A stretch of DNA of 64,000 nt, from NCBI RefSeq assembly GCF_022965805.1, contig NW_027331309.1:124001-188000 (forward strand), given 5' to 3'. Shown piece after piece: positions 35,817 to 56,465 of the stretch. Below the pieces are notes generated by a model. It searched no databases and was not told the origin of the DNA. It saw nothing but the letters and a program-made list of their open reading frames with translations. This stretch comes from Primulina eburnea (taxonomy: Eukaryota; Streptophyta; Magnoliopsida; Lamiales; Gesneriaceae). The first letter of the stretch is position 1, and each line of letters opens with the position of its first letter. The translations under genes and the position numbers were made by a program.

Positions 35817-36385
35817 CCCCTCAGTAAGCCCGACATCGCTCGGCACCTCAGTAAGCCCGACCTTGCTCGGCACATCAGTAAAGCCCGACCTTGCTCGGCA
35901 CTTCAGTAAGCCCGACCTTGCTCGGCACCTCAGTAAGCCCGACCCAGCTCGGCACCTCAGTAAGCCCGACCTTGCTCGGCACCTCAGTAAGCCCAAATCT
36001 GCTTGGCAATTACATAAGCCCGACTTTGCTCGGCACCTCAGTAAGCTCGACCTTGCTCGGCACCTCAGTAAGCCCGACCTTGCTCAGCACCTCAATGCAA
36101 TTACATAAGTCCGACCTTGCTCGGCACCTCAGTAAGTCCAACTCTGCTTGGCACCTCAGTAAGCCCGACCCAGCTCGGCACCTCAGTAAGCCCGACCTTG
36201 CTCGGCACCTCAGTAAGTCCAACTCTGCTTGGCAATTACATAAGCCCGACTTTGCTCGGCACCTCAGTAAGCCCGACCTTGCTCGACACCTCAGTAAGCT
36301 CGACCTTGCTCGGCACCTCAGTAAGCCCGACCTTGCTCGGCACCTCAATGCAATTACATAAGCTCGACTTTGCTCGGCACTCAGA
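35817..36385 (+). repeat. 27-bp tandem repeat array
   Basis: About 20 units of CCTCAGTAAGCCCGACCTTG plus CTCGGCA, with some units interrupted by CAATTACATAAG. The period is a multiple of three, so all frames stay open as a nine-residue repeat. It lies in the LARD-like interior. Confidence 0.92.
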
Positions 36386-36915
36386 TATTATCTATAACTC
36401 TTTATTTGAGCTTGGTTTTCAGCAGACTATTATCTATAGCTCTTTATTTGAGCTCGGTTTTCAGCATGATCTTATCTATAACTCTTTATTTGAGCTCAAT
36501 TTTCAGCAGACTATTATCTATAGCTCTTTATTTGAGCTTGGTTTTCAGCAGACTATTATTTATAGCTCTTTATTTGAGCTCGGTTTTCAGCATGATCTTA
36601 TCTATAACTCTTTATTTAAGCTCGATTTTGAGCAGACTATTATCTATAGCTCTTTATTTGAGCTCGGTATTCAGCTGGATATTATTTATAGCTCTTTATT
36701 TGAGCTCGGTTTTTAGGAGGATTATAGCTCTTTATTTGAGCTTGGTTTTCAGCAGTCTTTGATCTATAGCTCTTTATTTGTGCTCGATTTTCAGGAAGAT
36801 ATTATCTATAGCTCTTCATTTGAGCTCGATTTTCAATAGGATCTTATTTATACTTAGCTCGGTTATTAGCAGGATATTCTTTATGGCTCTTCATCTGAGC
36901 TTGACTTTCAGTAGT
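36386..36915 (+). repeat. About 42-bp tandem repeat array
   Basis: About 12 diverging units built on TATAGCTCTTTATTTGAGCT followed by CGGTTTTCAGCA and a variable ATTATC linker. It starts almost directly after the 27-bp array. Confidence 0.9.
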
Positions 36916-37851
36916 CGATATATCTCGAACTTCTTGTTTATGCTGGTCTCAACATCTTGACTCGGTTTTTATTAAGAGTATAGCCACTCTTGGCTCTTTT
37001 GACTCTCTAGCGACTCAATAGGAAAGAGCATATATTTGACTACCAATTCAGTAACAGATGACTACGTTGACCGTTTGTTTGGCTCACCTCAAAAAGTACA
37101 CTCCACAACAAACGCTCAAAGGACACTATTACATGCAACTAGAATATTATCTTACATACTCTAAAATATAATTCATTCATTTAACGTTCCTCCATCATTT
37201 CACTCGTCGTCACTTTTTTGCGGGGGGTACTAGTGATGATATGGTAAAAATCCTATCATATCATTAATTATATTTTAGAGGTGTCACAAAATATTATATG
37301 GATATGCAGAAATCTAGTTACCATGTATTACAAAATTCTATATCAACTAAGACTCTACACCTATAAATAAAGGGCTCCTAAACCCTAATCAAGGTACGAT
37401 TTCATGTACAATTATTTACATCAGTCTTATATTTTTCCCTCAAATAATATACTGACTTGAGCGTCGGAGTGGCTTCGCCTTCGGGCGGAGTCATCTCACA
37501 CGTTTTCTTTGATACACAGTTATATTTTTGGAGTGGTTTGATTCGGTATATTGAAGAATTGGTTCGTGATCATCGATTCAAGGTATTTTTATGGATGCGC
37601 ATTTTTTGAGCGCATCAATGAGCTTAAATAGAAACTCTACATATAAATAAGGAGTCATGTTCCAGATTACACGACGAAGTTATGTTATACTATATTTTAT
37701 CAATAATTAGATATCTGTAGTTAGAGAGCGTGAGAGAAAGTAAAAGACTCTTAAAATAAATCGTGTTGATCTGGAATATCGAGTCACATGTATCTATATA
37801 GATACCATTTTTTTTTCTTGACTAACGTGTATGATTTGATTATGGTTTTCA

Positions 37852-39492: not shown

Positions 39493-40061
39493 GCAAAATT
39501 TGTGTGAAACGGTCTCACGGGTCGTATTCAGGGGCGGATTTAGTGTAGGGCGAACGGGGGCCACGGCCCCCCCAAAAAATTTAAATTTTTTTTTTAGTAT
39601 ATATTAATTTTTTTAAACTAAATATATAAACAGATATATATATACATGGCCCCCCCAAAATGAAAGATACGCCCATGTATCTCAGTGGCTAAAGTCAATT
39701 ATGACGTTTGCTCCACCCGATTTCGAAACCTGAATCCGTCTTTTTTTTTGGATTAGCGACGGTTGTGACGGAAACCGTCGCAAAATCCGCGACGGTTTAT
39801 TATAACCGTCGCCATATAGCGATGGTTGTTGAAAAACCGTCGCAATATAGCGACGGTTGTTCAATAAACTAAGCGGCCCCCCCTCTGTCGGAATCCTAGA
39901 TCCGCCCCTGGTCGTATTTGTGAGACGGATCTCTTATTTGGATCATCTATGAAAAAGTATTATTTTTTATGCTAAGAGTATTACTTTTTATTGTGAATAT
40001 GGATAAGGTTGACCCGTCTCACCGATATGATCCGTGATACGGTCTCACAAGAAACCTACTC
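39493..40061 (+). mobile_element. GAGACGGTCTCAC MITE, copy 5, split by a hAT element
   Basis: The MITE starts GGCAAAATTTGTGTGAAACG and resumes after the insertion with TTGTGAGACGGATCTC, ending GATACGGTCTCACAAGAAAC. The two halves join correctly once the insert and one GTCGTATT copy are removed, so the MITE was there first. Confidence 0.92.
39529..39910. mobile_element. hAT-type MITE nested in the MITE, 382 bp
   Basis: TIRs CAGGGGCGGATTTAG and CTAGATCCGCCCCTG, with one mismatch. Perfect 8-bp target duplication GTCGTATT (39521-39528, 39911-39918). The interior carries four GCGACGGTT/AACCGTCGC blocks at about 39745-39862, and a tRNA-like stretch at 39675-39735 with box-like ATCTCAGTGGC and TTTCGAAACC. 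Confidence 0.93.
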
Positions 40062-41358
40062 GTAGTCCTAATGTAATTAAGATACTAATTGTAATGCAAA
40101 TACAATACTTTATAAAACATTATCATCGTCGTTCAAATGAAGAAAAAAAACCACACAGGGTTAATAATTTTTTTCCTGAAATTAATCATCAAAATTAGCA
40201 AAAATGATCATTATAATTTTAATCTGATATGTTTACTGTTTTGCAATTTTATTTTTTTATATTGTCAAATTTAATCTTAGTCCTGTATTTTTCAACATTT
40301 TTTGCAATTTTATTCAAATTTCTAAGAGAATACTGATGTTGCATGCACTCATTATATATGTCAGCGCCACATCAAAAAATAGAAAAAAGATAGCGGATCG
40401 AAACTGAAATTTCACAATGTGGGGAAAACCAAAATCGCAACATATAAGTACATCTTATCAAAATTTCAATTTTGGCTTAAAATTATTTCAAACAAAATTT
40501 GCGACTATCTCAGTTGTATTTAAGAGAATGGTTTTTAAAGTGGATAATTTTTTAATGATTGGTGATATTTTTTTATAGTTATTATCTACTTTAACTATTA
40601 AAATTCAATGAGCTGAAATTAAACCATGGTGTATAAATAAATTTATCGATAAAATCCTCTCTTGAATTTTTTTTAATTGATGCTCATGCTTTTTAAGTGT
40701 TTTTACATGAAATTATATCGAAAAATAAAAATATGCAGCGTGTGTAAAAGATTTTTAAGCAATTCAAATTTTGCACGATATCATGTTCAGATTTTTTAAA
40801 CCATATGTAACGTGCATAAAAGATTTATCATGGAGAAGCTTTAGCTGTAAATTTACTCGTTCGTGAGCTTTTTAACCTATTATAGTCCAATATTTTGGTT
40901 ACTCGATTTTATTTGGAATTTTTTCTTTAACATTCCTCGTTTCCATTTGAGGGAAAGATCTCTGGGATGTTTAAATGCCAAATCGATAAAAAAAAAAAAA
41001 AAAAAAAGGAACTTTGTTTAATTTAATTAATTCTCATATATACATATACATATACATATACATATATATAGTCTTAAAAAAGAGAGATGTGTTCAGTCCC
41101 AGTTTGATAACGAGTTGTATCTTTTTACAAAAAGTACTTTGTTGTATATGAGGCCTTGGATGGGCCACGAATTTGTCCATGTAGTTCATAGCAGAGGTCA
41201 CATGTTAATGAAAAAACAAACATTGAATTATTGCACCCTATCATAGAGCAGAGGTAATTGATTGATAATTCCTTTTATCCTTAGGTTAGAAAGCAAAAAA
41301 CAAACTTGGGATATGAACAAATATAAATGAAAATTTTACTTTTAAGTGTATAATTATT
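40062..41358. other. Intergenic, no gene seen
   Basis: AT-rich DNA with poly-A near 40988-41007 and an ATATAC simple repeat near 41036-41069. Confidence 0.45.
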
Positions 41359-41360
41359 GG

Positions 41361-41542
41361 AGTAGGTCTCTTGTGAGACGGTCTCACGAATCTTTATCTG
41401 TGAGATGACTCAATACTACTGATATTCATAATAAAAAATGATGCTCTTAGCATAAAAAGTAATAATTTTTCATGAATGACCCAAATAAGAGATTCGTCTA
41501 ACAAAATATGATACATGAGACCGTCTCGCACAAGTTTTTGCC
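41361..41542 (-). mobile_element. GAGACGGTCTCAC MITE, copy 6
   Basis: Starts AGTAGGTCTCTTGTGAGACG and ends ATGAGACCGTCTCGCACAAG. It ends 26 bp from the target site of the 13 kb retrotransposon, so it lay in the upstream region of the RALF gene before that insertion. Confidence 0.88.
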
Positions 41543-41572
41543 TAATTATTGATTTACTTTCATGACCTTGAT

Positions 41573-42300
41573 TGATGTCAACCTGGCAAATCGGGTAATA
41601 GCCGGGTGGGCGATTTGCCAAGTCAAGTGTTTGGATATATGTGCGGATGTTCTTGCAAGTTACTGATGGTCCGGGGTGGTTGAGTTCCCTGTCACCTGGA
41701 GGACAGTGCCCGGGATGATTTGAGTAATAACCCTGAAAACACAGAACGTTAGGGAAGCGCCGGAAGTTGTTCCGGCGTATCCACTCCGACGCTCAAGTCA
41801 GTAATGTACGCAAAGGAAAACTTAGAGGGAGTAAGAATATTTGTGAGTGCTTGTGAGTATTCCAAAAAGAGTTACCTCCTCTGTAGTACTTACGGGGGGT
41901 CTTTATAGATGAGGCAGGTAGATGACTTACCCGCCGAATTCGGATAGTGGTCCATGATTCGGGGTCATGGGCCACGTTGTCAAGTAGTGGGACACGTACT
42001 AAGAGTTGACCTGGTCATGGAATGGGGTAAAATAGGCTCCGCGATGTCAGGAAGACGTGGTGATCAAGGAGAGAATGCGTCTTTTTCTCGGGTGTTTTCC
42101 ACCCGAGTGCCTCTGAGGTGTTTCTTGAGCCGGGAAGTTTTTACCCCGGATATTAGCTGATTACTCCCCGGGCGTCCTTCCCACCAGGTCACTGAAGGTA
42201 ATTGTACTTCAATATCTTTTCCCCGTTCTGATCTTGCCCGAGTTCGAGAACCTTCCGGGTCAGGGTCCATACCCGGGCCCGGGTTCTCTTGGGGGCATCA
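41573..42300 (-). repeat. 3' LTR of the Tat element
   Basis: In element direction it runs from TGATGCCCCCAAGAGAACCC to GGTTGACATCA. The U3-type TATA (CTATAAAG on the minus strand) is at 41901-41908. Confidence 0.95.
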
Positions 42301-42312
42301 CCACTCCCTCCT
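42301..42312 (-). promoter_or_regulatory. Polypurine tract of the Tat element
   Basis: Minus-strand AGGAGGGAGTGG lies immediately before the 3' LTR, the expected plus-strand primer position. Confidence 0.8.
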
Positions 42313-42590
42313 AAAAAAGTCGGGCTAGAGTCTATCTCGCTGTCCCGATTAATAAAAGATGTTCTCCTGGTGATACAGGAGTCTTCTATGACTCTGCAGA
42401 TGTGGATACCCTTGCTGATGTCGTCGTAAGCCCTAAAATTCAAATTTATTTTCAACGTTCCGCGTTTCGAGGGCTGTTACAATATCTCGATATTGACGCC
42501 TGTCTTTTCGCCTGCCCTGCGCAACTTCCAATATTCACCCTAGCCGTAGATATATTCGAGAATCAACGATCGGGATATATTCCTCTTTCC

Positions 42591-42599
42591 TATATATAT
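42591..42599 (+). promoter_or_regulatory. TATA box of opposite-strand gene 1
   Basis: TATATATAT lies 47 bp upstream of the ATG at 42638, on the strand opposite to gag-pol. Confidence 0.6.
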
Positions 42600-42637
42600 C
42601 TGGTATCCCCTATCCCTTGCTAATTACTTTCATAAAT

Positions 42638-43057
42638 ATGGCCGATGCTAGCAGCTCGAGAACTCCCGGGATGACCGAAGCCCTTAGGGAGCCCAATCTG
42701 GAAGTTCAAAAGTCCATCATAGAAGATGAAGTACTGAACGAAGTTCTTGGCTATTGGGAAGAGCTTCAAGAACTGAAACTTCTTTACGATTCCGGGGAAG
42801 CCACCACTCCTGCCCTGGCATCCAAACTAAGGAAAGTGCGCAAACAACTACACTTAGCTGAGTGGGTGGACATCTTCACGGATGGTCATGTATATCAGCT
42901 GATGCTTCGGAAGGAATTGAAGCTCCTGAAGAACATTCTCGGCTCTTCCAGCTTCATGCAAGGCTCCACTCCCCCGCTGTCGGCTTGGTTGAAGATACGA
43001 ATAATTGTAATAGAAGAGAAATATGACGATGTAGTATGCGCCAATGTATATGGTTGA
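42638..43057 (+). CDS. Opposite-strand gene 1 of the Tat element (139 aa)
   Basis: A 139-residue open frame (start MADASSSRTPGM) antisense to the retrotransposon. The start is the first ATG after a TATA box; the longer upstream frame begins only at TTG. It is predicted largely helical, with no signal peptide or membrane segment. Near the C-terminus LMLRKELKLLKNILGSSSF and LSAWLK match LQAMLRKEWKQLRKL and LHSWM of gene 2. Upstream, EDEVLNEVLGYWEEL lines up with EEFILAKVMSTWHKI. The two genes are therefore paralogs. I know no family for either. Its 3' flank carries degenerate CCGGGG/CCCGGG units. Function unknown; expression is suggested only by the promoter-like context and open frame. Confidence 0.65.
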   Translation: MADASSSRTPGMTEALREPNLEVQKSIIEDEVLNEVLGYWEELQELKLLYDSGEATTPALASKLRKVRKQLHLAEWVDIFTDGHVYQLMLRKELKLLKNILGSSSFMQGSTPPLSAWLKIRIIVIEEKYDDVVCANVYG

Positions 43058-43189
43058 ATAAGAATTTATTTTAGTTCCTTTTCCTCTATCACCACTCGGC
43101 TTATAACCACTGTAAATCCAGTGACACATCATGAACGGGGCAAAACCATCTGAAATAATTTACTAAAAACTTCTGGACTTGATATCTCC

Positions 43190-43335
43190 CGGGCGATTAA
43201 CCCCAATGCTGGGGCCTTGCGTTCCCCGGGCTGTGAATCACCTGCGGGAGCCTCGGGCTTCCCGGGCTCCATGAAATGCCGGGGACTCGTGTTCCCCGGG
43301 CTTGGATGAGTGCCGATACCCTAAGACTTCCCGCC
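43190..43335. repeat. Degenerate CCGGGG...CCCGGG repeats after gene 1
   Basis: Four loosely conserved units pair a GGGGC or CCGGGG half with a CCCCGGGCT or CTCCCGGGC half. They resemble the units after genes 2 and 3, but without a fixed period. Confidence 0.6.
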
Positions 43336-43601
43336 CCTCGGTATGGTGTCCCCTACACAAATTTCGATCTTTGATACTAAAGTTCCGCCGAGGGACGCCC
43401 CATTTCCCAAGGTAATAATGACGCTGTGACATTGATATTTGTTCGCGTCCCTTTGACTACCTGGAACAATTTTTCAGGCGTTTCCTGATCCAACACGCAT
43501 GCTTAAACCAACGGTCGCGATTAATCTCTCCTCCATAAATGCGTAGTCGTTTCATATGGTTGGAAACTTTTCGGTTTCCTCCAGACTACCGACCTTTTGC
43601 C

Positions 43602-43609
43602 TATAAATA
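43602..43609 (+). promoter_or_regulatory. TATA box of opposite-strand gene 2
   Basis: TATAAATA lies 45 bp upstream of the ATG at 43647, almost the same spacing as in gene 1. Confidence 0.7.
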
Positions 43610-43646
43610 AGTAGATGAAGGCGAAGTGAGAGCGATTGTTTCGATC

Positions 43647-44021
43647 ATGCCGAGTTCAAGTGAAACTACTGTTAACAGCAGTCCGTATGGTCACTTGCCA
43701 CCCTCTACGCGCGTTCATTTAGAGTCGTTGAAGAGGACCATCGAGGAGTTTATTCTGGCGAAAGTTATGTCCACTTGGCATAAGATTCATAATCTTGTGC
43801 AATCCTTCCAAGACGGTCTGGCCTTTACCAGGCCACAGAGAGCATTGGACAGGAGATACAAACGGATATTTTATGTGACGCACGTGACCGAGCTAGCCAC
43901 TGATCAAGTTCTGCTTCAGGCGATGCTGCGGAAGGAGTGGAAACAGCTGCGCAAGCTTGCCGCTACCGAGTCCTTTGCCAACCTTCCCCTCCCTGAGCTT
44001 CATAGCTGGATGTCGGACTGA
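43647..44021 (+). CDS. Opposite-strand gene 2 of the Tat element (124 aa)
   Basis: A 124-residue open frame (start MPSSSETTVNSSPYG) on the strand opposite to gag-pol. It is paralogous to gene 1 over most of its length: both have an acidic I-x-E stretch, a V-x3-W helix, a central basic segment, MLRKE-x-K-x-L, a SF pair and a final L-x2-W. No known domain was recognised. Serine-rich N-termini and the TATA-to-ATG spacing are shared with gene 1, so gene and promoter seem to have duplicated together. Start chosen at the first ATG after the TATA box. A 36-bp repeat array begins about 120 bp downstream. Function unknown. Confidence 0.65.
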   Translation: MPSSSETTVNSSPYGHLPPSTRVHLESLKRTIEEFILAKVMSTWHKIHNLVQSFQDGLAFTRPQRALDRRYKRIFYVTHVTELATDQVLLQAMLRKEWKQLRKLAATESFANLPLPELHSWMSD

Positions 44022-44139
44022 GAGGATCATGTAGGCTCTAGGCTGGCTACTGCGATATTTCACCGATTTTATTAATAAAATTTTATTTTGCGCACTTCGC
44101 TTGTGCTCTTCCTTCAAGTTTATGGATTTTAAAGTAAAA

Positions 44140-44490
44140 AACCGGGGTTTAAAACCTTTCGGACTAACGATAACTTGCCGGGGCCTCAAACCTCCCGGGC
44201 TCAAAATAACTTCAAAACTTTCCGGGTCTAAAATAACTTGCCGGGGCTTCAAATCTCCCGGGCTTAAAATAACTTGCCGGGGCTTCAAACCTCCCGGGCT
44301 TAAAATAACTCGCCGGGGCTTCAAACCTCCCGGGCGAGTTACGGGGCTTCAAACCTCCCGGGCTTAAAATAACCCGCCGGGGCTTCAAACCTCCCGGGCT
44401 TAAAATAACTCGCCGGGGCTTCAAACCTCCCTGGCTTAAAATGACTTGCCGGGGCTTCAAACCTCCCGGGTTCGAGGTAACATGCCCGTT
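44140..44490. repeat. About 36-bp tandem repeat array after gene 2
   Basis: About nine units of TTGCCGGGGCTTCAAACCTC plus CCGGGCTTAAAATAAC, some truncated (for example at 44330). The unit layout GCCGGGGCTT-N-CCCGGGC-TTAA matches the 47-bp unit downstream of gene 3. Confidence 0.92.
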
Positions 44491-44764
44491 ATCTTTTTTG
44501 AGGGACATGTAGGATGTCATGATGACACGTGTTCCTTTTTCCTTTCTAACGGTCGGCAACGTTCCGTCTCCCGAGGACCCGATAAGTCTGACACCTTCAT
44601 AATTACACGTCCTTTCACCTGCTAGGTGCGACTTACGATGCGAATCTGATCATTCATATCCCTCCAGATCAACGGCGGAGATCCGTGATCCGGGTGTGTT
44701 TTTCTGAACCGACGCGGACCTTTGGATCATGGCTAGATCTACGGCCCAGGTCGTTTTTCTGCTC

Positions 44765-44774
44765 CTATATATAT
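44765..44774 (+). promoter_or_regulatory. TATA box of opposite-strand gene 3
   Basis: CTATATATAT lies about 150 bp upstream of the chosen ATG at 44915. It lies inside the longer open frame that starts at 44729, which argues against that earlier start. Confidence 0.6.
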
Positions 44775-44914
44775 CTCCTTCCCCAACCCGTCATTACTTT
44801 CGCCAATTTTCACTAAGCCTCCGCGTCTGCAACTCTGTCATACTGCCGATCAATCCCCAGCGATCAAACCACCACTTCTCTTCCAAACACCGCGTAAGTT
44901 CCCCTTTTTCCATT

Positions 44915-47255
44915 ATGTCTTCCTCCCGTACTTCTTCTACTTCGGGTAACATCTATCAGGGCTCCTCGGAATTTGAGTCGGAGGCCCTGCGCGATAGTCC
45001 CCCGATTTCTGCCTCCCCCGTTTCTACTTTTCGTCCTCAAAATTCAACTCTTCCTTTTCCTCCCCTCAAAAAATCTAAAACTTCTCGCGGAGCTGGGCCC
45101 TCCCGTCCCCAGAAGAAAAAGAAGAAGGTAACTTCTTCGAAACCTTTAGCCCGGGCTATTCCTTCTCCTGCCCGGGCTACTGATTCTGGCCCCTTGCCAT
45201 GGTTTTCTACCATGGTGAGCTCTCTCCGAGCCAAATCCGCCGAGGAGATCCGCATCCTTGGCTCCATCCCTGTTGACCATGCTATTGTCATCCCTGGTCC
45301 CAGTGATCGGGCTGACAAGCCACCAGAAGGGTATCTTACCTTCTTTCGAGACCAGGTCATCAATGGCCTCAGATTTCCCCTTCACCCTTTTTTCATTGGG
45401 ATATCTTCCCTTCTTGGCATTCCTCTCAACCAATTTCACCCTAATGCCATTAGGATGATGACTTGTTTTTTCACCCTCCTCTCCATGCACCCCGACATTC
45501 CCCTTGAGCCTTGCCTTTTTAATTTTTTCTTTATCTGCTACATTGGCGATTACGCCTTTTCGTTCAAGACCCGGTCTCACCATAAACTTTTCGGAGATAT
45601 TCCTTCTTCTGTCAAGGACTGGAAACGTCGGTTCTTTTACATTCGTCCTGCTAAACTCCCTGAATGCCCGATTGGGTTTATTTCTACCCTTCCTGATCAA
45701 CCGGGTCTTCCTGAGAACCACCGCATACTTGACTCTTACACCCAGTGTGAGGAGGTGGTAGGCGGTAAGGTGTATAGCTCCTCTGCCCTCCTTGGTGAAA
45801 ATTTATTGGTGACTTACGGTCTGAGCCCCGGGGTGGAGGAGCCTACCGATCGCATCATCGAAGAGTTCGATGCCTTTCGCCCCGGTAGGTTCCTTTCGCT
45901 AACCCTTATTGTGCTGCCTTTCCCTTGGTAGATCACATAATCTAACGGGCTGTTTTATTTCCTGCAGACGCTGAGATGAAAGAGGCCTTTGCCCAAAAGT
46001 TGGCTGAGGAAAAAGCGGCTAGGAAAGCTGCCCGGAAGGCCGCTGCTGCTGAAAGGAAGGCACGAGAGCAGCGGGGGTCTTCATCCCAGGCGGCTACTGA
46101 AGACCGGGTCGAGGAGGAGCTGGCATCCCAGATGCCTGTCGAAAAAGGGACCTTGGCTACTGCTGAGGCCGGGCAGGCTGGTACCTCTCCTAACGTCCAG
46201 ACTGCCAAGACCTCCGAGCCCAAGGAGCGAGGGGTTATTCTAATCGAAGGGGAGGACGAGTCCTCAGACCGGCCCCTCCAAACCACTAAGAAAAGGAAAG
46301 CTTCAAAAGAGCTTGTCCGTGTTGAGCCCCGGGTGGTTCAGGGGTCCGGGCTTGTCCCGCCAATGTCTACAGATGGCACTACTTCCCCCTCCCCCGCAGT
46401 GCCCGAGACCATTTTCTCGGCCGGAAGTTCGTCGATAGGCTTCCACACGCTGAAGCGAGTGGCAACTCCTGCCGATGAGACCATGCTTCTGGCTTCGAAG
46501 GCCGGGGATCTGATGATGGAGAGTTTCAATCTCCTACTAGCTGTAAGTGTTTTCTTTCCACCACTCCTGCTTCTTTGCTTCATCTGTATACTTTCTTCCT
46601 TATGCATTTCTTGGTTTATTCCCAGAGCGGGCAAATGGCTAGAGCGGCCTTTGAGAAGATGGGTGCTTATCAAAAAAGCACTGAGGCCCGGGCAGCCTCC
46701 GCCCAGGCTCTCCATGATGAGGCCCAGGCCCGCATAGTTCAGCTCCAAGAGCTCCATGCGGATGCCCTCCTTGGCCAGAGCACCACAATAGACTGCTTGC
46801 AGGGCCAGCTCGGGGAGGCTCGGGCAGAAATCGTCTCGCTGAAGGCTCAATTGGAGAAGGCAGAGGCCAGGGTTGAAAAGTTAGATTTAGATGCACGGGC
46901 TGCCCTGGATAATTTCGTGCTGGCCACTCAGAGGGTGGCTGAGCTGGAGGCTACTCTTGCAGCCCGGGAAGCGGATCTTAAGGCTCGGGCCATTTTAGAA
47001 GAGGAGTGGCGGGCTGCTTTCCTTACTACTGCAGAATTTCAGCAGCTGGTGATAAATAAAGCATTTCCTTATTTCAAGGCGGGCTTTAATAAATGCAAAG
47101 CGCAAGTGAGGGAAGCCGGCCTTCTGCCTCTGGAAAAGAAAGGCATACTGGACTTAGCCCGGGCTGTTAACTCCCTGCCCGAGGACGGTGCTGAGCTCCC
47201 GGCTGAGGAGGAATCCGAGGTGGAGGAGGACTCGGGGCCAGAGACTGCTTCTTAA
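44915..47255 (+). CDS. Opposite-strand gene 3: Transposase_28-like protein, 3 exons
   Basis: Exons 44915-45884, 45968-46542 and 46626-47255 join in frame to 724 residues. Intron 1 is 83 bp (GTAGGT...CTGCAG) and intron 2 is 83 bp (GTAAGT...TCCCAG). Without splicing each frame stops soon after the donor, so the introns are well supported. The N-terminus is Ser-rich (MSSSRTSSTSG). A basic PQKKKKKV near residue 66 may be a nuclear localisation signal. Residues about 138-250 (GLRFPLHPFFIGISSLLGIP, then FHPNAIRMM) match the domain Pfam calls Transposase_28, putative gypsy-type transposon, known from such elements; its biochemical role is unestablished. Exon 2 has a Lys/Ala/Glu-rich helix, an acidic segment and a KKRK patch. 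Exon 3 is a long coiled coil with an acidic tail. The alternative ATG at 44729 precedes the TATA box. Transcription converges on the gag-pol 3' end. Confidence 0.82.
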
Positions 47256-47394
47256 TATTTTTTGCACTTCTTTCCTCTGGTAGTTGTAATACTTTTCCTT
47301 AATGAAATTTCTCCTATTCGTCCCTGGGTCTTTGTTTTGTAAATAAGAAGAATCCGTCAAGTGTTGGAAGGTAATCGGGCTTTCCAACTTAGTA

Positions 47395-48815
47395 ATACAT
47401 TGACATGAAGCCGGGGCATGGTACCACCCAGGCCCTTAATAATAAACTGAAGGGAAAGCCGGGGCGTGGTGTCACCCGGGCCCTTAATAATAAATTGAAG
47501 GGAAGCCGGGGCATGGTACCACCCGGACCCTTAATAATAAACTGAAGGGAAGCCGGAGCTTGGTACCACCCGGGCCCTTAATAATAAATTGAAGGGAAGC
47601 CGGGGCTTGGTCCCACCCGGGCCCTTAATAATAAATTGAAGGGAAGCCGGGGCTTGGTCCCACCCGGGCCCTTAATAATAAATTGAAGGGAAGCCGGGGC
47701 ATGGTACCACCCGGGCCCTTAATAATAAACTGAAGGGAAAGCCGGGGCAAGGTACCACCCGGACCCTTAATAATAAACTGAAGGGAAGCCGGAGCTTGGT
47801 ACCACCCGGGCCCTTAATAATAAATTGAAGGGAAGCCGGGGCTTGGTCCCACCCGGGCCTTTAATAATAAACTGAAGGGAAGCCGGGGCTTGGTCCCAAC
47901 CGGGCCCTTAATAATAAATTGAAGGGAAGCCGGGGCTTGGTCCCACCCGGGCCCTTAATAATAAACTGAAGGGAAGCCGGGGCTTGGTCCCAACCCGGGC
48001 CCTTAATAATAAACTGAAGGGAAGCCGGGGCTTGGTCCCACCCGGGCCCTTAATAATAAATTGAAGGGAAGCCGGGGCATGGTACCACCCGGGCCCTTAA
48101 TAATAAATTGAAGGGAAAGCCGGGGCAAGGTACCACCCGGACCCTTAATAATAAACTGAAGGGAAGCCGGAGCTTGGTACCACCCGGGCCCTTAATAATA
48201 AATTGAAGGGAAGCCGGGGCTTGGTCCCACCCGGGCCCTTAATAATAAACTGAAGGGAAGCCGGGGCTTGGTCCCAACCCGGGCCCTTAATAATAAACTG
48301 AAGGGAAGCCGGGGCTTGGTCCCACCCGGGCCCTTAATAATAAATTGAAGGGAAGCCGGGGCATGGTACCACCCGGGCCCTTAATAATAAACTGAAGGGA
48401 AAGCCGGGGCGTGGTGCCACCCGGGCCCTTAATAATAAATTGAAGGGAAGCCGGGGCATGGTCCCACCCGGGCCCTTAATAATAAATTGAAGGGAAGCCG
48501 GGGCATGGTACCACCCGGGCCCTTAATAATAAACTGAAGGGAAGCCGGGGCTTGGTACCACCCGGGCCCTTAATAATAAATTGGAGGGAAGCCGGGGCAT
48601 GGTACCACCCGGGCCCTTAATAATAAACTGAAGGGAAAGCCGGGGCGTGGTGCCACCCGGGCCCTTAATAATAAATTGAAGGGAAACCGGGGCATGGTAC
48701 CACCCGGGCCCTTTATAAATTGTTTGAGGGGAAGCCGGGGCATGGTACCACCCGGGCCCTTTATAATAAATTGAAGGGAGGCCGGGGCATGGTACCACCC
48801 GGGCCCTTTAAAATA
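47395..48815. repeat. 47-bp tandem repeat array, about 30 copies
   Basis: The unit is GCCGGGGCTTGGTCCCACCC plus GGGCCCTTAATAATAAATTG plus AAGGGAA, with GCATGGTACC, GCGTGGTGCC and GCAAGGTACC variants. A block of about 8 units recurs after 378 bp (GCCGGGGCAA at 47741 and 48119), showing higher-order duplication. The array lies between the end of gag-pol and the end of gene 3. Frames read from it are not genes. Confidence 0.95.
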
Positions 48816-48873
48816 AACTTTCCTGAAGCTTGCTTTTTATTGCCAAGTATTTACAAGGGATTTACAAAAACTT

Positions 48874-51800
48874 CTAAGGAAAATATTTCTTAAGATGGAA
48901 AGCATTCCAGGGCCTTTTGAGAGGACGGCCTTGCCCATCTTCAAGATAATAAGTGCTTGAGCTAACTTTGCGCACCACCTTGTAAGGACCTTCCCATCGG
49001 GCCTCAAGCTTGCCAACATCTCCAGCCGGATTTGCTTTTTTCAGGACCATATCTCCTATCTGGAATTCCCGATGTCGGACCCTTTGGTTATAAGTTTTCA
49101 TCACCCGACGCCGATAAGCCTCCATTTTGATTGCCGCTCTTTCTCTCCTTTCTTCAATGAGATCGAGTTCATTGGCTCGGGCCTTATCATTATCCTCCGG
49201 ATATGCGTGCACCCGGGTTGAGGTTTGCCCGATCTCGGCCGGGAGCACTGCTTCAGAACCATACACCAGGCTGAATGGTGTTTCCCCAGTAGCCGTTCGA
49301 GGTGTGGTACGGTATGCCCAAAGAACACTGGGCAACTCTTCTACCCAGTCTTTTCCAACTCCGTATAATCGAGCTCTGAGTGCCTGGACAATAGTGCGGT
49401 TGGTTACCTCAGTCTGCCCATTGGCTTGTGGGTAAGCAACTGAGGTAAAAGCCTGAGTAATCTTCATCTCCTCGCACCAAGCCCTGACTTTATTCCCCTG
49501 GAATTGCCTGCCGTTGTCAGATATAAGCTTTCGGGGAATCCCGAACCTGCAGACAATATTTTTCCATAGGAATTTAAGAACCTCTCCCTCCGTGATTTTA
49601 GCCAGGGGCTCTGCTTCCACCCATTTAGAGAAGTAATCAATCCCTACGAGCAAAAATTTTTTTTGAGCTCGGGCCACAGGGAAGGATCCCACGATATCCA
49701 GGCCCCACTGATCAAAAGGGCAAGAGGCCCGGATAGGCTTCATCAGGGCAGTTGGGTGGTGATTAATGTTGCTATACCTTTGGCATCCCTCACATGAGCG
49801 GACCACCCGGGCAGAATCTTGATGCATAGTAGGCCACCAGAATCCAGCGAGCAAAGCCTTCCTAGCCAGGGAGGTTGCTCCAAGATGATCTCCGCAGCAG
49901 CCCTCATGAATCTCCCTTAGAACATAAATGGACTCATCCCCGGAGATACACTTGAGAAGGGGACCTTGGAAAGACCGCCGGTATAGGATGTCATTGATCA
50001 CAACAAAACGAGCTGCTCTCTTTTTTATTTGACTGGCCTCCTTGGCATCCTCGGGTAGATGGGACCGGGAGATGTAGTCAAGGATGGGGGTGGCCCAATC
50101 ATCTTCCCGGGTTTTAGGAGGCTCGGTATCCACTGAGGATACCAGGCTAGTGTGGTAAGATATACCCGGCTCCCGATAATCAGCGAGTGAAGCCGCCATT
50201 TTTGCCAGGGCATCGGCTTCAGTATTTTTCTCTCGGGGAATCTGTTCTATGCTCCAATCTGTGAAATGTGACGATGATTCTCTGATGATAGTCAGATATT
50301 TTATAAACTTATCCTCCCGGGCCTCATATGCTCCTTTTACTTGTTGGGCTACCAACTGCGAATCCGTATAAATAATGACTCGGGCAGCTCCAACATCCCG
50401 GGCCGCTTTTATCCCGATGATAACGGCCTCGTATTCTGCTTCATTATTGGAGGCCCGGAAGTCCAACCTCACTGCCAACTGTATTTTTTCCTCGGTGGGT
50501 GATATCAATAGTACTCCCACTCCACTGCCATCTTTACAGGAGGCCCCGTCTGCAAATATTCTCCAAATTCCGCCAGCCTCGGGAACAATCATCTCGGTGA
50601 TAAAATCTGACAAGGCCTGGGCCTTAATTGCCTTCCTGGGCTGGTACTCGATGTCATATTCTCCCAATTCTACAGTCCACTTTACTAGCCTTCCCGAGAT
50701 CTCGGGCTGAGTCATGATTCTCCCGAGAGGGGTGTTAGTCAGCACAGTGATAGGATGGGACAAGAAGTATGGGCGGAGTTTCCGTGCTGTGATCACCAGA
50801 GCTAGGGCCACCTTCTCTACCTCCGTATATCTGGTCTCGGGCCCCTTGAGCGCGTGACTCACATAGTAGACCGGCCTTTGATCGGTACCTTCCTCTCGGA
50901 TCAGTACAGAGCTAACAGCATGCTCAGTGGCCGAAAGGTACACCCAAAGTTTCTCCCCGGGTCCAGGCTTCTCAAGGACAGGAAGTCCGGCGAGATGATT
51001 CTTCAATTCTTCGAAAGCCTTCTCACATTTTTCATCCCAACCAAACTCTTTGGCTTTCCTTAGAGCTTGAAAAAAGGGGTAGCTCCGGTGTGCAGATCGA
51101 GAAATGAAACGTGATAAGGCGGCGATTTTCCCTGTGAGCCTCTGCACATCCTTGACTGACTTTGGGGATGCCATTTCAGTAATAGACTTGACTTTATCCG
51201 GATTGACCTCGATTCCTCTCTCGGTGACCATGAACCCGAGGAACTTGCCGCTCTTAACCCCAAACGTGCATTTGGCCGGGTTTAACCTCACCCCATACTC
51301 TCGGAGAGTAGAGAAAGTCTCTTCGAGGTCTGGGATGAGCTCATTGTGTGTCCGAGATTTCACCAAGATATCGTCCACGTAAACCTCTACATTTCGCCCG
51401 GCTTGCTTGGTGAATATCCTGTCCATCAATCTTTGATATGTGGCCCCGGCATTTTTTAATCCAAAGGGCATGACCACATAGCAAAAGGTTCCTCCCGAGG
51501 TAATGAAGCTAACCTTCTCCTGATCTTCCCGGGCCAAGGGGATCTGATGGTACCCCTGATAGGCATCCATGAAGCACAGCAATTCATACCCCGATGTCGA
51601 ATCCACCAGTTGATCAATCCGGGGCAAGGGGTAGCAGTCTTTTGGGCACGCTTTATTCAAGTCCCTGAAATCAACGCACATTCGCCACTTACCGGATGAT
51701 TTTGGAACCAAGACCACGTTGGATAACCAGGTGGGGAACTGGACCTCTCTGATCTGCCCGGCTTCCAATAATTCTCCCACCTGTTCCGCAATTATTTTGT

Positions 51801-54069
51801 CTTTTTCGAGACCAAAGTGCCTCTTCCTCTGCTTTATTGCCCGGGAGCCCGGGATGATATTTAACCTGTGCTCAGCCACGTGAGGGGAGATCCCTATCAA
51901 TTCTGATGAGGACCATGCGAAGATATCCGCATTCTTTGTTAGGCACTGTAGTAATTGAGCCCGGGTTACTGGCTCAAGATCCCGGGCTATCCTTGTTGTT
52001 TTCAAGGGCTGCCCGGGTAAGATGCTTACTTCCTCCTGCTCCTCTCCCTCCACCATGTATACCTGTTGGGTAAAGTGCACCTCCTCCTTCCCTGGTCTCC
52101 TATTCTCTCCACTTCGTCGGGTTCTTTTATTTTCAACTTTGACGGTTTCCGCGTAGCACTTGCGGGAGGACGGCTGGTCCCCCTTTACTTCTCCAATTCT
52201 ATTCCCCACTGGGAATTTTAGCTTCTGGTGGTAAGCCGAGGCCACGGCCCGCAAGGCATTCATAGCAGGCCTGCCCAAGATGATATTATAAGATGTGGGG
52301 GCATTTACCACCGTGAAAACCGTCATCACCGTCTTTCGAAGGTCTTCAGCTCCTATGGTGAGGGGCAAGGTGATTTCCCCCCGGGGATAAACAGTGTGAC
52401 CAGCAAATCCGAATAACGCCGTTTCTACTGGCTGCAAACGGTAGTCTTCCAGGTTCATCTGATCCAGGGCCTCCAGGAAAATAACGTTCACTGAGCTCCC
52501 TGAATCGACGAAGACCCGGCGAATGTCATAATTTGCCACCTTCGCTTGGATGACTAGGGCATCGTTGTGTGGGAGACTGACTCCCTGAAGATCCCGAGGG
52601 CCGAAACTGATGACCGGTCCTTCACTCCTTACTGTATTTTCCACTCCGAAACTCTCATGCCGGGAATGTGCCTTTCTGGCTCGGTTGGAGTCTCCATCTG
52701 TCGATCCTCCCGAAATCATTTTAATCACCCCGAGGGTCGGTGACCTTCCTCCGTCCTTATTTTCCTTGCTTGGAGATACTTGACCGGTATCACCCTTCCT
52801 CTCCTGTCTGATCGGGCCTTTGTTCCCCGGCCCATACCCTGCATCCCTGTTCACCCATGGTGGTCCCCGGGATTTCTTCGTTACCTGCTCCGAAGCACCA
52901 GGGCCCGACTGGGAAGGGGCCCGCTTCATTTTCCGGCATTCGCTCGTGCTGTGGGCACATTCTCCGTGATAGGAGCATATTTTCGTGATATAGGACAGGT
53001 TTGGGGGCGACTGGTATGACCTGGCTTTCTTCTCATTGTCGCAAATATGGATTCCTTCACCCCGGTGTGGCTTCATTGGGGTGTATCGAGAAAAACGCCC
53101 AAGATTATTTCCTCGGGTGTGGTCATCAGTTTTTACCACCCGGTCACCCCTTTCTTTACGGGTAGATTCCCTTTTCTGCCGCTGTGCTTCCTCCATATTT
53201 ATATACTTCTCTGCCCGGGACAGCAGATCTTCAAAATTCCCGGGCTGCTTCTTCACCAAAGACCTGAAAAAATCTCCCTCCTTGAGTCCCTGAGTGAACG
53301 CTGTAGTTTTGGTTTCAGGAGCACAAGCCGGCACCTCCAGGGATGCTTTATTGAACCGGCGAATGTACGCCCGAAGAGATTCATCACCGGATTGCTTTAT
53401 CTCGAACAAGCTAAAGGCGGTCTTCTTATACCTCTTGCTGCTGCTAAAGTGGTGCAAGAAAGTGTCTCTGAAACCTGCAAAAGATTGTATGCTCCGGGGT
53501 TTCAACTTTTCGAACCACCTCTGGGCAGAGTCTACTAAAGTGGTGAGGAACACCTTGCACTTGATTTTGTCAGAGTAGCAATGTAACATGGCCACATTCT
53601 CAAACCGGGTGAGATGCTCGTCAGGGTCTGAGTTTCCATCATACTCCCGTATTTTGGTAGCTTTGAAATGGGCTGGGAGGGGCTCACTCACAATTTCCAG
53701 GGAGAAAGGGCATCCCTGGGAGGCATCCGGGGCTGAAACCTGAGATGACCCTGCTTTAGCTTCCAGCTCTTTCACTTTCTTCTTTAAATCTTCTAGCTCC
53801 TGGATCATAGCAAAGGTAGGAGCTTTGGAAAACGCCTGGGAATTCTCTTCTCGGTCTCTCTCTTTTTCAAGAGGAGACTCTCCCATTGCCTCATTTTCCT
53901 TTGAGTGACTGGATTCAGGTAGGCCCCTTTCGGCAAGAGCTTTTTGGACCGCAGCAGCTATCAACTGAGCCAACTCCTCTGGGAGGTGACTGGGCAATGA
54001 ATTTTCTTGACCTCCTTCCGGATTTTGGGGACCAGAGTGGTTCCCCGTAGTTTTACGAGTGGTAACCAT
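48874..54069 (-). CDS. Gag-pol polyprotein of the Tat element, 1731 aa
   Basis: A single unbroken frame from the ATG at 54069, 22 bp downstream of the primer site. Domains in order: short coiled coil (about 88-106); retrotransposon Gag (about 168-292); a Cys/His cluster at 365-378 that is not a standard CCHC knuckle; aspartic protease with VDSGSS at 521-526; reverse transcriptase with DLNKACPKDCYPLPRID at 803-819 and YVDD at 897-900; a Ty3-type RNase H near 1040-1150 whose first catalytic Asp position reads LSATEH, so it is degenerate; an archaeal-type RNase H at 1170-1295 with D1174, E1212, D1236 and D1286; and integrase with H1388, H1395, C1426, C1429 and catalytic D1458, D1518, E1554 (D-x59-D-x35-E). 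No frameshift or stop is present. The protein would be cut by its own protease into particle, enzyme and integrase parts. Confidence 0.97.
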   Translation of the reverse strand: MVTTRKTTGNHSGPQNPEGGQENSLPSHLPEELAQLIAAAVQKALAERGLPESSHSKENEAMGESPLEKERDREENSQAFSKAPTFAMIQELEDLKKKVKELEAKAGSSQVSAPDASQGCPFSLEIVSEPLPAHFKATKIREYDGNSDPDEHLTRFENVAMLHCYSDKIKCKVFLTTLVDSAQRWFEKLKPRSIQSFAGFRDTFLHHFSSSKRYKKTAFSLFEIKQSGDESLRAYIRRFNKASLEVPACAPETKTTAFTQGLKEGDFFRSLVKKQPGNFEDLLSRAEKYINMEEAQRQKRESTRKERGDRVVKTDDHTRGNNLGRFSRYTPMKPHRGEGIHICDNEKKARSYQSPPNLSYITKICSYHGECAHSTSECRKMKRAPSQSGPGASEQVTKKSRGPPWVNRDAGYGPGNKGPIRQERKGDTGQVSPSKENKDGGRSPTLGVIKMISGGSTDGDSNRARKAHSRHESFGVENTVRSEGPVISFGPRDLQGVSLPHNDALVIQAKVANYDIRRVFVDSGSSVNVIFLEALDQMNLEDYRLQPVETALFGFAGHTVYPRGEITLPLTIGAEDLRKTVMTVFTVVNAPTSYNIILGRPAMNALRAVASAYHQKLKFPVGNRIGEVKGDQPSSRKCYAETVKVENKRTRRSGENRRPGKEEVHFTQQVYMVEGEEQEEVSILPGQPLKTTRIARDLEPVTRAQLLQCLTKNADIFAWSSSELIGISPHVAEHRLNIIPGSRAIKQRKRHFGLEKDKIIAEQVGELLEAGQIREVQFPTWLSNVVLVPKSSGKWRMCVDFRDLNKACPKDCYPLPRIDQLVDSTSGYELLCFMDAYQGYHQIPLAREDQEKVSFITSGGTFCYVVMPFGLKNAGATYQRLMDRIFTKQAGRNVEVYVDDILVKSRTHNELIPDLEETFSTLREYGVRLNPAKCTFGVKSGKFLGFMVTERGIEVNPDKVKSITEMASPKSVKDVQRLTGKIAALSRFISRSAHRSYPFFQALRKAKEFGWDEKCEKAFEELKNHLAGLPVLEKPGPGEKLWVYLSATEHAVSSVLIREEGTDQRPVYYVSHALKGPETRYTEVEKVALALVITARKLRPYFLSHPITVLTNTPLGRIMTQPEISGRLVKWTVELGEYDIEYQPRKAIKAQALSDFITEMIVPEAGGIWRIFADGASCKDGSGVGVLLISPTEEKIQLAVRLDFRASNNEAEYEAVIIGIKAARDVGAARVIIYTDSQLVAQQVKGAYEAREDKFIKYLTIIRESSSHFTDWSIEQIPREKNTEADALAKMAASLADYREPGISYHTSLVSSVDTEPPKTREDDWATPILDYISRSHLPEDAKEASQIKKRAARFVVINDILYRRSFQGPLLKCISGDESIYVLREIHEGCCGDHLGATSLARKALLAGFWWPTMHQDSARVVRSCEGCQRYSNINHHPTALMKPIRASCPFDQWGLDIVGSFPVARAQKKFLLVGIDYFSKWVEAEPLAKITEGEVLKFLWKNIVCRFGIPRKLISDNGRQFQGNKVRAWCEEMKITQAFTSVAYPQANGQTEVTNRTIVQALRARLYGVGKDWVEELPSVLWAYRTTPRTATGETPFSLVYGSEAVLPAEIGQTSTRVHAYPEDNDKARANELDLIEERRERAAIKMEAYRRRVMKTYNQRVRHREFQIGDMVLKKANPAGDVGKLEARWEGPYKVVRKVSSSTYYLEDGQGRPLKRPWNAFHLKKYFP

Positions 54070-54109: not shown

Positions 54110-54819
54110 TGATGTCAACCTGGCAAATCGGGTAATAGCCGGGTGGGCGATTTGCCAAGTCAAGTGTTTGGATATATGTGCGGATGTTCTTGCAAGTTAC
54201 TGATGGTCCGGGGTGGTTGAGTTCCCTGTCACCTGGAGGACAGTGCCCGGGATGATTTGAGTAATAACCCTGAAAACACAGAACGTTAGGGAAGCGCCGG
54301 AAGTTGTTCCGGCGTATCCACTCCGACGCTCAAGTCAGTAATGTACGCAAAGGAAAACTTAGAGGGAGTAAGAATATTTGTGAGTGCTTGTGAGTATTCC
54401 AAAAAGAGTTACCTCCTCTGTAGTACTTACGGGGGGTCTTTATAGATGAGGCGATGACTTACCCGCCGAATTCGGATAGTGGTCCATGATTCGGGGTCAT
54501 GGGCCACGTTGTCAAGTAGTGGGACACGTACTAAGAGTTGACCTGGTCATGGAATGGGGTAAAATAGGCTCCGCGATGGTGATCAAGGAGAGAATGCGTC
54601 TTTTTCTCGGGTGTTTTCCACCCGAGTGCCTCTGAGGTGTTTCTTGAGCCGGGAAGTTTTTACCCCGGATATTAGCTGATTACTCCCCGGGCGTCCTTCC
54701 CACCAGGTCACTGAAGGTAATTGTACTTCAATATCTTTTCCCCGTTCTGATCTTGCCCGAGTTCGAGAACCTTCCGGGTCAGAGTCCATACCCGGGCCCG
54801 GGTTCTCTTGGGGGCATCA
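54110..54819 (-). repeat. 5' LTR of the Tat element
   Basis: Contains the element promoter, with minus-strand CTATAAAG at 54438-54445, directed away from the RALF gene. It lacks 18 bp (5 + 13) present in the other LTR. Confidence 0.95.
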
Positions 54820-54824
54820 TTGAT

Positions 54825-56230: not shown

Positions 56231-56465
56231 GTCATTAAATATTTTGGTGTTCTCTAAAATAATTAATCTAAGAGTCTCACGCTTAATAATATAATATATA
56301 TTACTATTATTTTGGATTTTTTTGAAAATGAATTTTTTTTACCAAATCATAACTAAGTGTGAGAAATTTAAAAACTATAACAATCCGTGGAATGTTCCCG
56401 GATTTGATAGTAAAAGGCAATATAATAAGACAATTGAACATTTCGTCAAAAATTACATAATAATA

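What the first reader, a model, noticed from the sequence alone, without database searches (positions are those of the whole stretch)
42591..47255. Three promoter-equipped genes on the opposite strand of a young retrotransposon
Seen: between pol and the 3' LTR, three open frames run against gag-pol, each with a TATA box 45-150 bp before its first ATG. The third has two introns of 83 bp that close in frame to 724 codons. Known: opposite-strand ORFs and Transposase_28 domains occur in Tat-type elements. Inference: this is a working accessory module, perhaps regulating the host or the element. A spliced, antisense, multi-gene cassette with two paralogous small proteins of no recognised family is the strongest candidate for an undescribed system here.
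Basis: partly seen in the sequence, partly recalled or inferred. Interest (0 to 1): 0.9.

Follow-up and report, generated by a model that had tools for sequence, protein, structure and literature searches.

The report
Spliced antisense gene cassette in retrotransposon
A young plant jumping gene carries three real, selectively maintained genes on its opposite strand, each with a conserved promoter box; one is a version with introns of a known accessory gene, and the other two are a small protein family that also sits inside an unrelated class of retrotransposon, which suggests that mobile elements trade accessory genes.

Summary
The window carries a Retand-like Ty3/gypsy element on the minus strand (LTRs 41573-42300 and 54110-54819, TSD TTGAT, one 1731-aa gag-pol frame). 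Between pol and the 3' LTR lie three plus-strand genes: ORF1 (139 aa), ORF2 (124 aa here, 142 aa in 29 of 39 siblings) and ORF3 (724 aa, two 83-bp introns).

They are more than open frames. Among open copies from the same genome (24-31 of 40 per part), dN/dS is 0.16-0.32. Intron lengths vary by amounts that are not multiples of three, yet each intron keeps GT-AG in 37 of 39 siblings. TATA boxes persist in 34/35, 38/39 and 39/39.

ORF3 is the Transposase_28 (TRP28) gene, a published Retand hallmark; I did not find its introns described. ORF1 and ORF2 are a small-protein family, below the ORF-size cut-offs of the two surveys I consulted. Homologues sit, antisense and with TATA boxes, inside Ty1/copia (SIRE-like) elements of this genome, so they have passed between superfamilies. 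The element is also loaded with CCCGGG (68 seen, 7.4 expected).

Best reading: an independently transcribed accessory cassette whose products act on the element's own DNA. Coding and selection are shown; expression, splicing and function are inferred.

The parts
41573..42300 (-). 3' LTR (728 bp), TSD TTGAT at 41568-41572
   Evidence: direct repeat with 54110-54819; alignment shows 1 substitution and two indels
42301..42319 (-). polypurine tract next to the 3' LTR (minus strand reads CTTTTTTAGGAGGGAGTGG)
   Evidence: read directly
42591..42598 (+). TATA box of ORF1 (TATATATA), 47 bp before ATG
   Evidence: TATAWA in 34 of 35 siblings with the region
42638..43057 (+). ORF1, 139 aa, small protein of no Pfam family (predicted helical, low confidence); paralogue of ORF2
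   Evidence: full length in 30 of 39 siblings; dN/dS 0.155; homologue in a copia element 62% aa
43602..43609 (+). TATA box of ORF2 (TATAAATA), 45 bp before ATG
   Evidence: 38 of 39 siblings
43647..44021 (+). ORF2, 124 aa in this copy (142 aa in 29 of 39 siblings, i.e. truncated here)
   Evidence: dN/dS 0.174; lengths; copia homologue 42% aa
44142..44470 (.). tandem array 1, 36-bp unit holding CCGGGG and CCCGGG
44766..44774 (+). TATA box of ORF3 (TATATATAT), 149 bp before ATG
   Evidence: 39 of 39 siblings
44915..45884 (+). ORF3 exon 1: Transposase_28 (TRP28) domain and a basic KKKKK stretch (the latter seen by eye)
   Evidence: PF04195 E=1.1e-5, 25.9 bits, cut-off 26.2; dN/dS 0.177
45885..45967 (+). 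ORF3 intron 1, 83 bp, GT-AG
   Evidence: GT-AG in 37 of 39 siblings; GT and AG at the matching place in the distant RetB element (read by eye)
45968..46542 (+). ORF3 exon 2
   Evidence: dN/dS 0.321
46543..46625 (+). ORF3 intron 2, 83 bp, GT-AG
   Evidence: GT-AG in 37 of 39 siblings
46626..47255 (+). ORF3 exon 3, Ala/Glu-rich C-terminal part (by eye)
   Evidence: dN/dS 0.216
47388..48817 (.). tandem array 2, 47-bp unit, about 30 copies, holding CCGGGG and CCCGGG
48874..54069 (-). gag-pol of the host element, one 1731-aa frame; 16 CCCGGG against 3.2 expected
   Evidence: Pfam domains; synonymous-codon shuffles
54110..54819 (-). 5' LTR (710 bp), TSD TTGAT at 54820-54824

Best explanation
A working antisense accessory cassette of a Retand-like retrotransposon. 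Three genes are read from their own promoters on the strand opposite to gag-pol: two small paralogous proteins (ORF1, ORF2) and a spliced 724-aa TRP28 protein with basic, NLS-like stretches. Being antisense, they can be expressed when the LTR is silent. Their introns survive retrotransposition because the reverse-transcribed RNA is the other strand. The proteins act in trans, most likely in the nucleus on the element's own DNA. ORF3 is the prime candidate to recognise CCCGGG, which is spread over the LTRs, spacers and pol and concentrated in two tandem arrays; binding would open or regulate the element's chromatin or transcription. ORF1 and ORF2 are accessory genes useful enough to have moved between a Ty3/gypsy and a Ty1/copia lineage. 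Shown here: coding, selection, intron and TATA conservation, sharing between superfamilies, motif enrichment. Inferred: transcription, splicing, nuclear location, DNA binding, the regulatory role.
For: dN/dS 0.155-0.321 with upper limits at most 0.402 in all five coding parts. Wrong frames give 0.71-1.82, except the frame whose wobble positions coincide, 0.25-0.41. Introns vary in length but each keeps GT-AG in 37 of 39, and no copy shows precise intron loss. Introns lie at matching places in RetB at about 45% aa identity (intron 1 edges read by eye, intron 2 inferred from the frame change). TATA boxes are conserved and also stand before the 9 of 9 ORF1/ORF2 homologues examined in RetB and three copia copies. 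ORF1/ORF2 lie antisense inside a copia element bounded by LTRs, a TSD and a PBS. CCCGGG: 68 vs 7.4 expected in the element, 36 vs 4.5 without arrays, 1 in the other 50.7 kb; top of 1727 6-mers in pol against synonymous shuffles, 0 of 1000. Precedents: Grande gene23 nuclear protein with its own promoter (review PMC7264820); TRP28 predicted to bind DNA (PMC11963269).
Against: No RNA evidence of any kind. No usable structure: AlphaFold models had pLDDT 49 and 35. The link between ORF3 and CCCGGG is association only. CCCGGG is not significantly enriched in ORF1, ORF2, exon 2 or exon 3. A second palindrome, GGTACC, is also over-represented (19 vs 2.6) and is part of the array 2 unit, so array growth alone raises such counts. 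Only 12 of 39 siblings keep an ORF3 of 690 aa or more. In the one copia copy whose LTRs I located, ORF1 has lost its ATG and ORF2 is cut short. dN/dS of pol was not obtained for comparison.
Confidence: 0.6

Rival explanations
1. The antisense RNA itself is the functional product: transcripts from the three promoters pair with genomic RNA and feed dsRNA or siRNA, or interfere with replication, as a brake on the element. The frames are incidental or secondary.
For: All three genes are complementary to the 3' part of the genomic RNA (layout); antisense transcripts restrain Ty1 (passage in PMC12786077) and PMC7264820 raises this possibility.
Against: An RNA function does not predict dN/dS of 0.16-0.32 in frame, exon phase and splice-site conservation, or protein-level conservation at saturated synonymous sites between gypsy and copia copies.
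Confidence: 0.12
2. The proteins are cytoplasmic or replication cofactors (particle assembly, RNA chaperone, nuclear import of the pre-integration complex) rather than regulators of transcription or silencing. CCCGGG palindromes then serve RNA dimerisation or packaging, or come from a copying bias.
For: Accessory proteins of retroviruses act at many steps (argued in PMC7264820); short GC palindromes serve as dimerisation loops in retroviruses (recalled). ORF1 is predicted helical (low confidence).
Against: CCCGGG is spread over pol, LTRs and spacers and packed in arrays on both sides of the TRP28 gene, unlike one or two packaging sites; ORF3 has basic NLS-like stretches (read by eye) and the Grande counterpart is nuclear (review).
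Confidence: 0.2
3. Passenger sequence: captured genes with no use to the element, kept open because the copies are young.
For: The eight closest siblings are 99-100% identical in exon 1 and 27 of 39 siblings have an ORF3 under 690 aa.
Against: Selection is measured on pairs at least 3% apart and across families at saturated synonymous sites. In 12 siblings where most of spacer 1-2 aligns it is 71-75% identical while ORF1 is 87-98%.
Confidence: 0.03
4. The cassette mainly regulates host genes (domesticated or manipulative function).
For: No result here bears on host targets.
Against: The window copy, the RetB locus and the four copia loci are element copies. The 39 sibling modules were not checked for pol or LTRs. 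No host gene with these frames was seen, but none was searched for beyond, which scored the best 150 of 4688 and 4411 candidates.
Confidence: 0.05

Closest known systems
Retand lineage of Ty3/gypsy (Tat clade) with antisense TRP28 ORF (Vicient 2025, PMC11963269)
   Same: Antisense ORF3 with PF04195 between pol and the 3' LTR, tandem arrays in the same region, gag-pol in one frame, LTR and internal sizes within the published ranges
   Different: Two introns in the TRP28 gene, conserved TATA boxes, and two extra small paralogous genes; that survey considered ORFs of at least 600 bp (or TRP28-bearing) and a search of its main text gave no 'intron', 'TATA' or 'paralog'
Maize Grande gene23 (Gomez-Orte 2013, not held; seen only through the review PMC7264820)
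   Different: No sequence comparison could be made here; small paralogues and sharing with copia are not mentioned in the parts of the review that I read (1-2 of 3)
Extra ORFs of SIRE-lineage Ty1/copia (Neumann 2019, PMC6317226, passages)
   Same: The copia element found here has a sense extra ORF after pol, as 74% of SIRE elements do
   Different: It also carries ORF1 and ORF2 in antisense, homologous to those of the gypsy element; that survey used a 250-codon minimum, above the size of either protein
VANDAL VANC anti-silencing system (PMC5735166, passages)
   Different: VANDALs are DNA transposons (recalled); Pfam shows no credible domain other than Transposase_28 in ORF1-3; here CCCGGG is also enriched in pol coding sequence; binding and demethylation are untested
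Shared ORF3 modules of bdelloid rotifer retroelements (PMC5408684, abstract read)
   Same: Accessory ORFs shared between unrelated retroelement types
   Different: Animal elements, enzymatic ORFs; here small proteins of no known enzyme family in antisense with their own TATA boxes, in a plant

Membership tests
Retand lineage (Ty3/gypsy, Tat) | RT places the element in the Retand clade | not tested
Retand lineage (Ty3/gypsy, Tat) | additional RNase H between RH and integrase | tested here: met
   RVT_3 at residues 1174-1292, between RT RNase H (1011-1138) and Integrase_H2C2 (1383); feature as stated in PMC6317226
Retand lineage (Ty3/gypsy, Tat) | antisense ORF with TRP28 between pol and the 3' LTR | tested here: met
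   PF04195 E=1.1e-5, 25.9 bits against a 26.2 cut-off, so just under it; 40% identity to P0001, which carries PF04195
[quoted passage not shown]
   two arrays
Retand lineage (Ty3/gypsy, Tat) | published size ranges: LTR 315-1194 bp, internal 7,380-12,869 bp, pol-3'LTR 2,933-6,566 bp | tested here: inconclusive
   LTR 728/710 and internal 11,809 bp lie inside; pol-3'LTR is 6,573 bp, 7 bp above the maximum
SIRE lineage (Ty1/copia), for the second carrier | copia gag and RT, tRNA-Met-type PBS, sense extra ORF after pol | tested here: met
   PF14223 and PF20167 (the latter E=9.4e-7, below its cut-off) in L052, PF07727 in L048, L049 and L053; GGTATCAGAGC next to the 5' LTR of L052 (tRNA-Met assignment recalled); TSD GGTAT read by eye
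SIRE lineage (Ty1/copia), for the second carrier | RT places the element in the SIRE clade | not tested
   no reference RT set
VANC-type anti-silencing | TE-specific motif enriched in the element and in tandem repeats | tested here: met
   CCCGGG 68 vs 7.4 expected; present in both array units
VANC-type anti-silencing | sequence relationship to VANC proteins | tested here: inconclusive
   Pfam shows no credible domain other than Transposase_28 in ORF1-3; no direct alignment to a VANC protein was made
VANC-type anti-silencing | protein binds the motif and removes DNA methylation in trans | not testable with these tools
   needs DAP-seq, EMSA and bisulfite sequencing

The most novel reading that the evidence does not exclude
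Retand-like elements carry a self-recognition, anti-silencing system: independently transcribed antisense genes make a TRP28 protein that reads CCCGGG, a motif the element has accumulated even inside pol and amplified in tandem arrays, and ORF1/ORF2 are mobile cofactors that have spread between Retand and SIRE-type copia elements. This would be a VANC-like system invented independently in retrotransposons, with parts traded between superfamilies.
Probability: 0.25. Interest if true: 0.88.

Novelty: new variant of a known kind. Interest (0 to 1): 0.64.

Why it matters
The function of the antisense ORFs of Retand elements is an open question in the literature (PMC11963269, PMC7264820). This locus makes it testable: it gives exact gene models with introns and TATA boxes, shows by dN/dS that the proteins matter, names a candidate target motif, and shows that two small genes, shorter than the ORF-length cut-offs of two surveys, have passed between Ty3/gypsy and Ty1/copia elements. 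The surviving introns also show in nature the logic of the antisense-intron reporter: a retroelement can keep introns only in genes on the strand that is not reverse transcribed.

Tried and rejected
Homologues of ORF1 and ORF2 in the 5.8-billion protein set: none at E 0.01. The control with TRP28 exon 1 found only 2 proteins, so that set barely covers plant element proteins and the absence says nothing.

Structure: ORF1 (two-row alignment) pLDDT 49 and TRP28 (three rows) pLDDT 35; no fold search was run on such models. PDB profile search with the ORF1/ORF2 alignment: one hit at E=0.92, taken as chance.

Direction of the transfer: a tree of 18 proteins separates ORF1s from ORF2s (100/100), each side holding window-type, RetB and copia members, but leaves the order of these carriers unresolved; the program warns about the long RetB branch. 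Zero CCCGGG in copia copies and in a 1.9-kb gypsy-like stretch equals the expectation for their composition and is not used as evidence.

dN/dS of pol for comparison: not obtained.

Steinbauerova 2011, Gomez-Orte 2013 and Kejnovsky 2006 are not held, so earlier mention of small antisense ORFs there cannot be excluded. Literature searches answered. None of them asked for CCCGGG in retrotransposons.
Full report
ELEMENT. The window lies in an 812-Mb genome, a plant's by its elements (inference). A Ty3/gypsy element sits on the minus strand: 5' LTR 54110-54819, 3' LTR 41573-42300, TSD TTGAT, LTRs differing by one substitution and two indels, gag-pol in one 1731-aa frame with gag, RT, RNase H, a second RNase H-like domain and integrase. 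Domain order, antisense TRP28, arrays and most sizes fit the Retand lineage as described in PMC11963269 (parts 1-3 of 5 read; passages) and PMC6317226 (passages); RT phylogeny was not tested. I call the window's family RetA.

THE THREE GENES. ORF1 42638-43057, ORF2 43647-44021 and ORF3 44915-47255 with introns 45885-45967 and 46543-46625. ORF3 exon 1 matches Transposase_28 just below the curated cut-off and is 40% identical, over 65% of its length, to a protein that carries the domain. ORF1 and ORF2 have no credible Pfam match (the only one, MerT for ORF2 at E=0.04, is far below its cut-off) and are paralogues.

SIBLINGS. A DNA search with exon 1 scored 40 of 151 candidates in the genome: the window's own copy and 39 others, 82-100% identical. 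I fetched all 39 modules, about 5 kb each, and did not check them for pol or LTRs. ORF1 is full length in 30 of 39; ORF2 has 142 aa in 29 of 39 (the window copy stops at 124); ORF3 reaches at least 690 aa in 12 of 39; intron 1 and intron 2 are each GT-AG in 37 of 39. Over the 40 copies intron lengths are 78-88 and 79-87 bp, except in one disrupted copy, L035 (99 and 24). No copy shows precise intron loss. Exon 2 varies in length (563-614 bp outside two disrupted copies, L035 and L036), and its length agrees with the window's modulo three in 32 of 40 copies (my count).

SELECTION. NG86, pairs at least 3% apart, open copies only, 60 codon bootstraps: ORF1 0.155 (0.106-0.248; 30 of 40 copies), ORF2 0.174 (0.107-0.280; 31), exon 1 0.177 (0.133-0.232; 28), exon 2 0.321 (0.249-0.402; 26), exon 3 0.216 (0.151-0.302; 24). 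With broken copies included: 0.161, 0.320, 0.184, 0.322, 0.301. Shifted frames give 0.71-1.82, except the reverse frame whose wobble coincides (0.25-0.41), which in each case lies above the sense frame, for ORF2 only barely (0.346 vs 0.320). Pairs share ancestry and the modules recombine, so the intervals are over codons, not over independent lineages. I could not measure pol in the same copies.

PROMOTERS. TATAWA before ORF1, ORF2 and ORF3 in 34/35, 38/39 and 39/39 siblings that have the region; in control 70-bp windows 8/259, 2/414, 1/520 and 3/717. In 12 siblings where most of spacer 1-2 aligns (L022, L024-L027, L030, L035, L037, L039, L042, L044, L045) it is 71-75% identical while ORF1 is 87-98%; in others only a part of the spacer aligned, at a higher identity, or the copies are close throughout.

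DISTANT RELATIVES IN THE SAME GENOME. A protein search with ORF1 scored 150 of 4688 candidates: by my count 80 at 80% identity or more and 70 at 60-66%. I inspected 4 of those 70 (C1:50.03 Mb, C9:15.96 Mb, C1:27.13 Mb, C7:30.21 Mb): all 4 lie next to a copia pol in antisense. An ORF2 homologue was looked for in 3 of the 4 and found in all 3. The C1:27.13 Mb copy is bounded by 95% identical LTRs (L054:451-1408 and L052:8825-9789), with TSD GGTAT (by eye) and a PBS reading GGTATCAGAGC, copia gag PF14223 and a sense extra ORF PF20167, as expected of the SIRE lineage (PMC6317226, passages). In that copy ORF1 has lost its ATG and ORF2 is cut short; the C1:50.03 Mb copy has both complete (132 and 141 aa) with TATAAAT boxes, but its own LTRs were not found. 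Between the window's ORF1 and four copia ORF1s, pN is 0.20-0.22 and pS 0.69-0.81, i.e. saturated, with dN/dS about 0.13 in the 2 of 4 comparisons where dS could be computed. Among the copia copies themselves dN/dS is 0.22-0.54 (6 pairs, few differences).

An ORF2 search (150 of 4411 scored) showed a further group at 53-61%. The one place I looked at (C18:0.58 Mb, L058/L059) is a second Retand-like family, RetB: ORF2 (59%), an array, ORF1 (43%), a second ORF2-like gene with a broken frame (47%), then a TRP28 gene (about 45%, exon 1 in two frames in this copy) with introns at matching places, and pol on the other strand (68%). A tree of 18 proteins separates ORF1s from ORF2s (100/100), each side with RetA, RetB and copia members, so the duplication is older than the split of the carriers; the order of the carriers is unresolved. 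The genes have therefore crossed between gypsy and copia; the direction is open.

CCCGGG. The element holds 68 CCCGGG where a first-order Markov model expects 7.4 (36 vs 4.5 without the arrays); the other 50.7 kb of the window holds 1 (2.0 expected). In pol it is the most over-represented of 1727 6-mers against synonymous-codon shuffles (16 vs 3.2; 0 of 1000). In exon 1 it is enriched (3 vs 0.7; 15 of 1000), but not significantly in exon 2 (310 of 1000), exon 3 (164), ORF1 (241) or ORF2 (none present). Over the sibling copies with the window's: 99 vs 9.6 in spacer 1-2 (39 copies), 300 vs 29.9 in spacer 2-3 including array 1 (40), 347 vs 53 in the exons (40). RetB shows it too (8 vs 1.8 and 9 vs 1.9). 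The palindrome next in rank, GGTACC (19 vs 2.6), belongs to the array 2 unit. Outside the arrays the flanks carry little information beyond a weak G before and C after. VANC proteins recognise short motifs enriched in their own elements and arranged as tandem repeats, mainly in non-coding parts (PMC5735166, passages). The parallel is suggestive; binding is untested.

MECHANISM. Shown: coding, selection, conserved introns and TATA boxes, sharing between superfamilies, motif enrichment. Inferred: independent antisense transcription, splicing, nuclear action on the element's DNA. The antisense layout explains how introns persist in a retroelement, since the spliced strand is not the one reverse transcribed.

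NOVELTY. Antisense TRP28 ORFs, arrays and own-promoter antisense transcription are published. I did not find published introns in the TRP28 gene, the small paralogous pair, or its presence in a copia element (searches: judged from listings; texts opened, in part: PMC11963269, PMC7264820, PMC6317226, PMC12786077, PMC5408684, PMC5735166). The CCCGGG load was not searched for in the literature. Three older papers were not held, so prior mention is possible. The two surveys that I consulted used minimum ORF sizes of 600 bp and 250 codons, above the size of ORF1 and ORF2.

Several counts and scopes were narrowed on re-reading the calls (sibling modules not checked for pol or LTRs; ORF2 in 3 of 4 copia loci; CCCGGG literature not searched; GGTACC added).

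Noticed in passing
43647-44021: ORF2 of this copy ends 18 codons earlier than in 29 of 39 siblings, so this young element carries a truncated member of its own cassette.
   Followed up: yes
L017-L021: Sibling modules are mosaics: L017-L019 match the window at 100% in ORF1 but 81-82% in exon 2, while L020-L021 match at 99-100% in the aligned parts of exons 2-3 but 90% in ORF1, which points to recombination or template switching between families.
   Followed up: no
L058:1503-4585: A second Retand-like family carries three small antisense genes (ORF2, ORF1, broken ORF2), so the number and order of the small genes differ between families.
   Followed up: partly
32874-33193 and 37232-37621: Two pairs of direct repeats of 98-99% identity about 4.4 kb apart enclosing minisatellites of 27- and 42-bp units (35827-36881); possibly a young non-autonomous LTR element.
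   Followed up: no
7801-7999, 39878-40065, 41358-41525, 56043-56883, 62391-62612: A dispersed family of about 150-200 bp in both orientations, MITE- or SINE-like by eye.
   Followed up: no
L049:4053-6001: A polyprotein fragment that looks gypsy-type (by eye) next to the copia copy that carries the ORF1 homologue.
   Followed up: no
44142-44470 and 47388-48817: The two arrays have different periods (36 and 47 bp) yet share the layout CCGGGGCTT ... CCCGGGC, as if built around the same bipartite site.
   Followed up: partly
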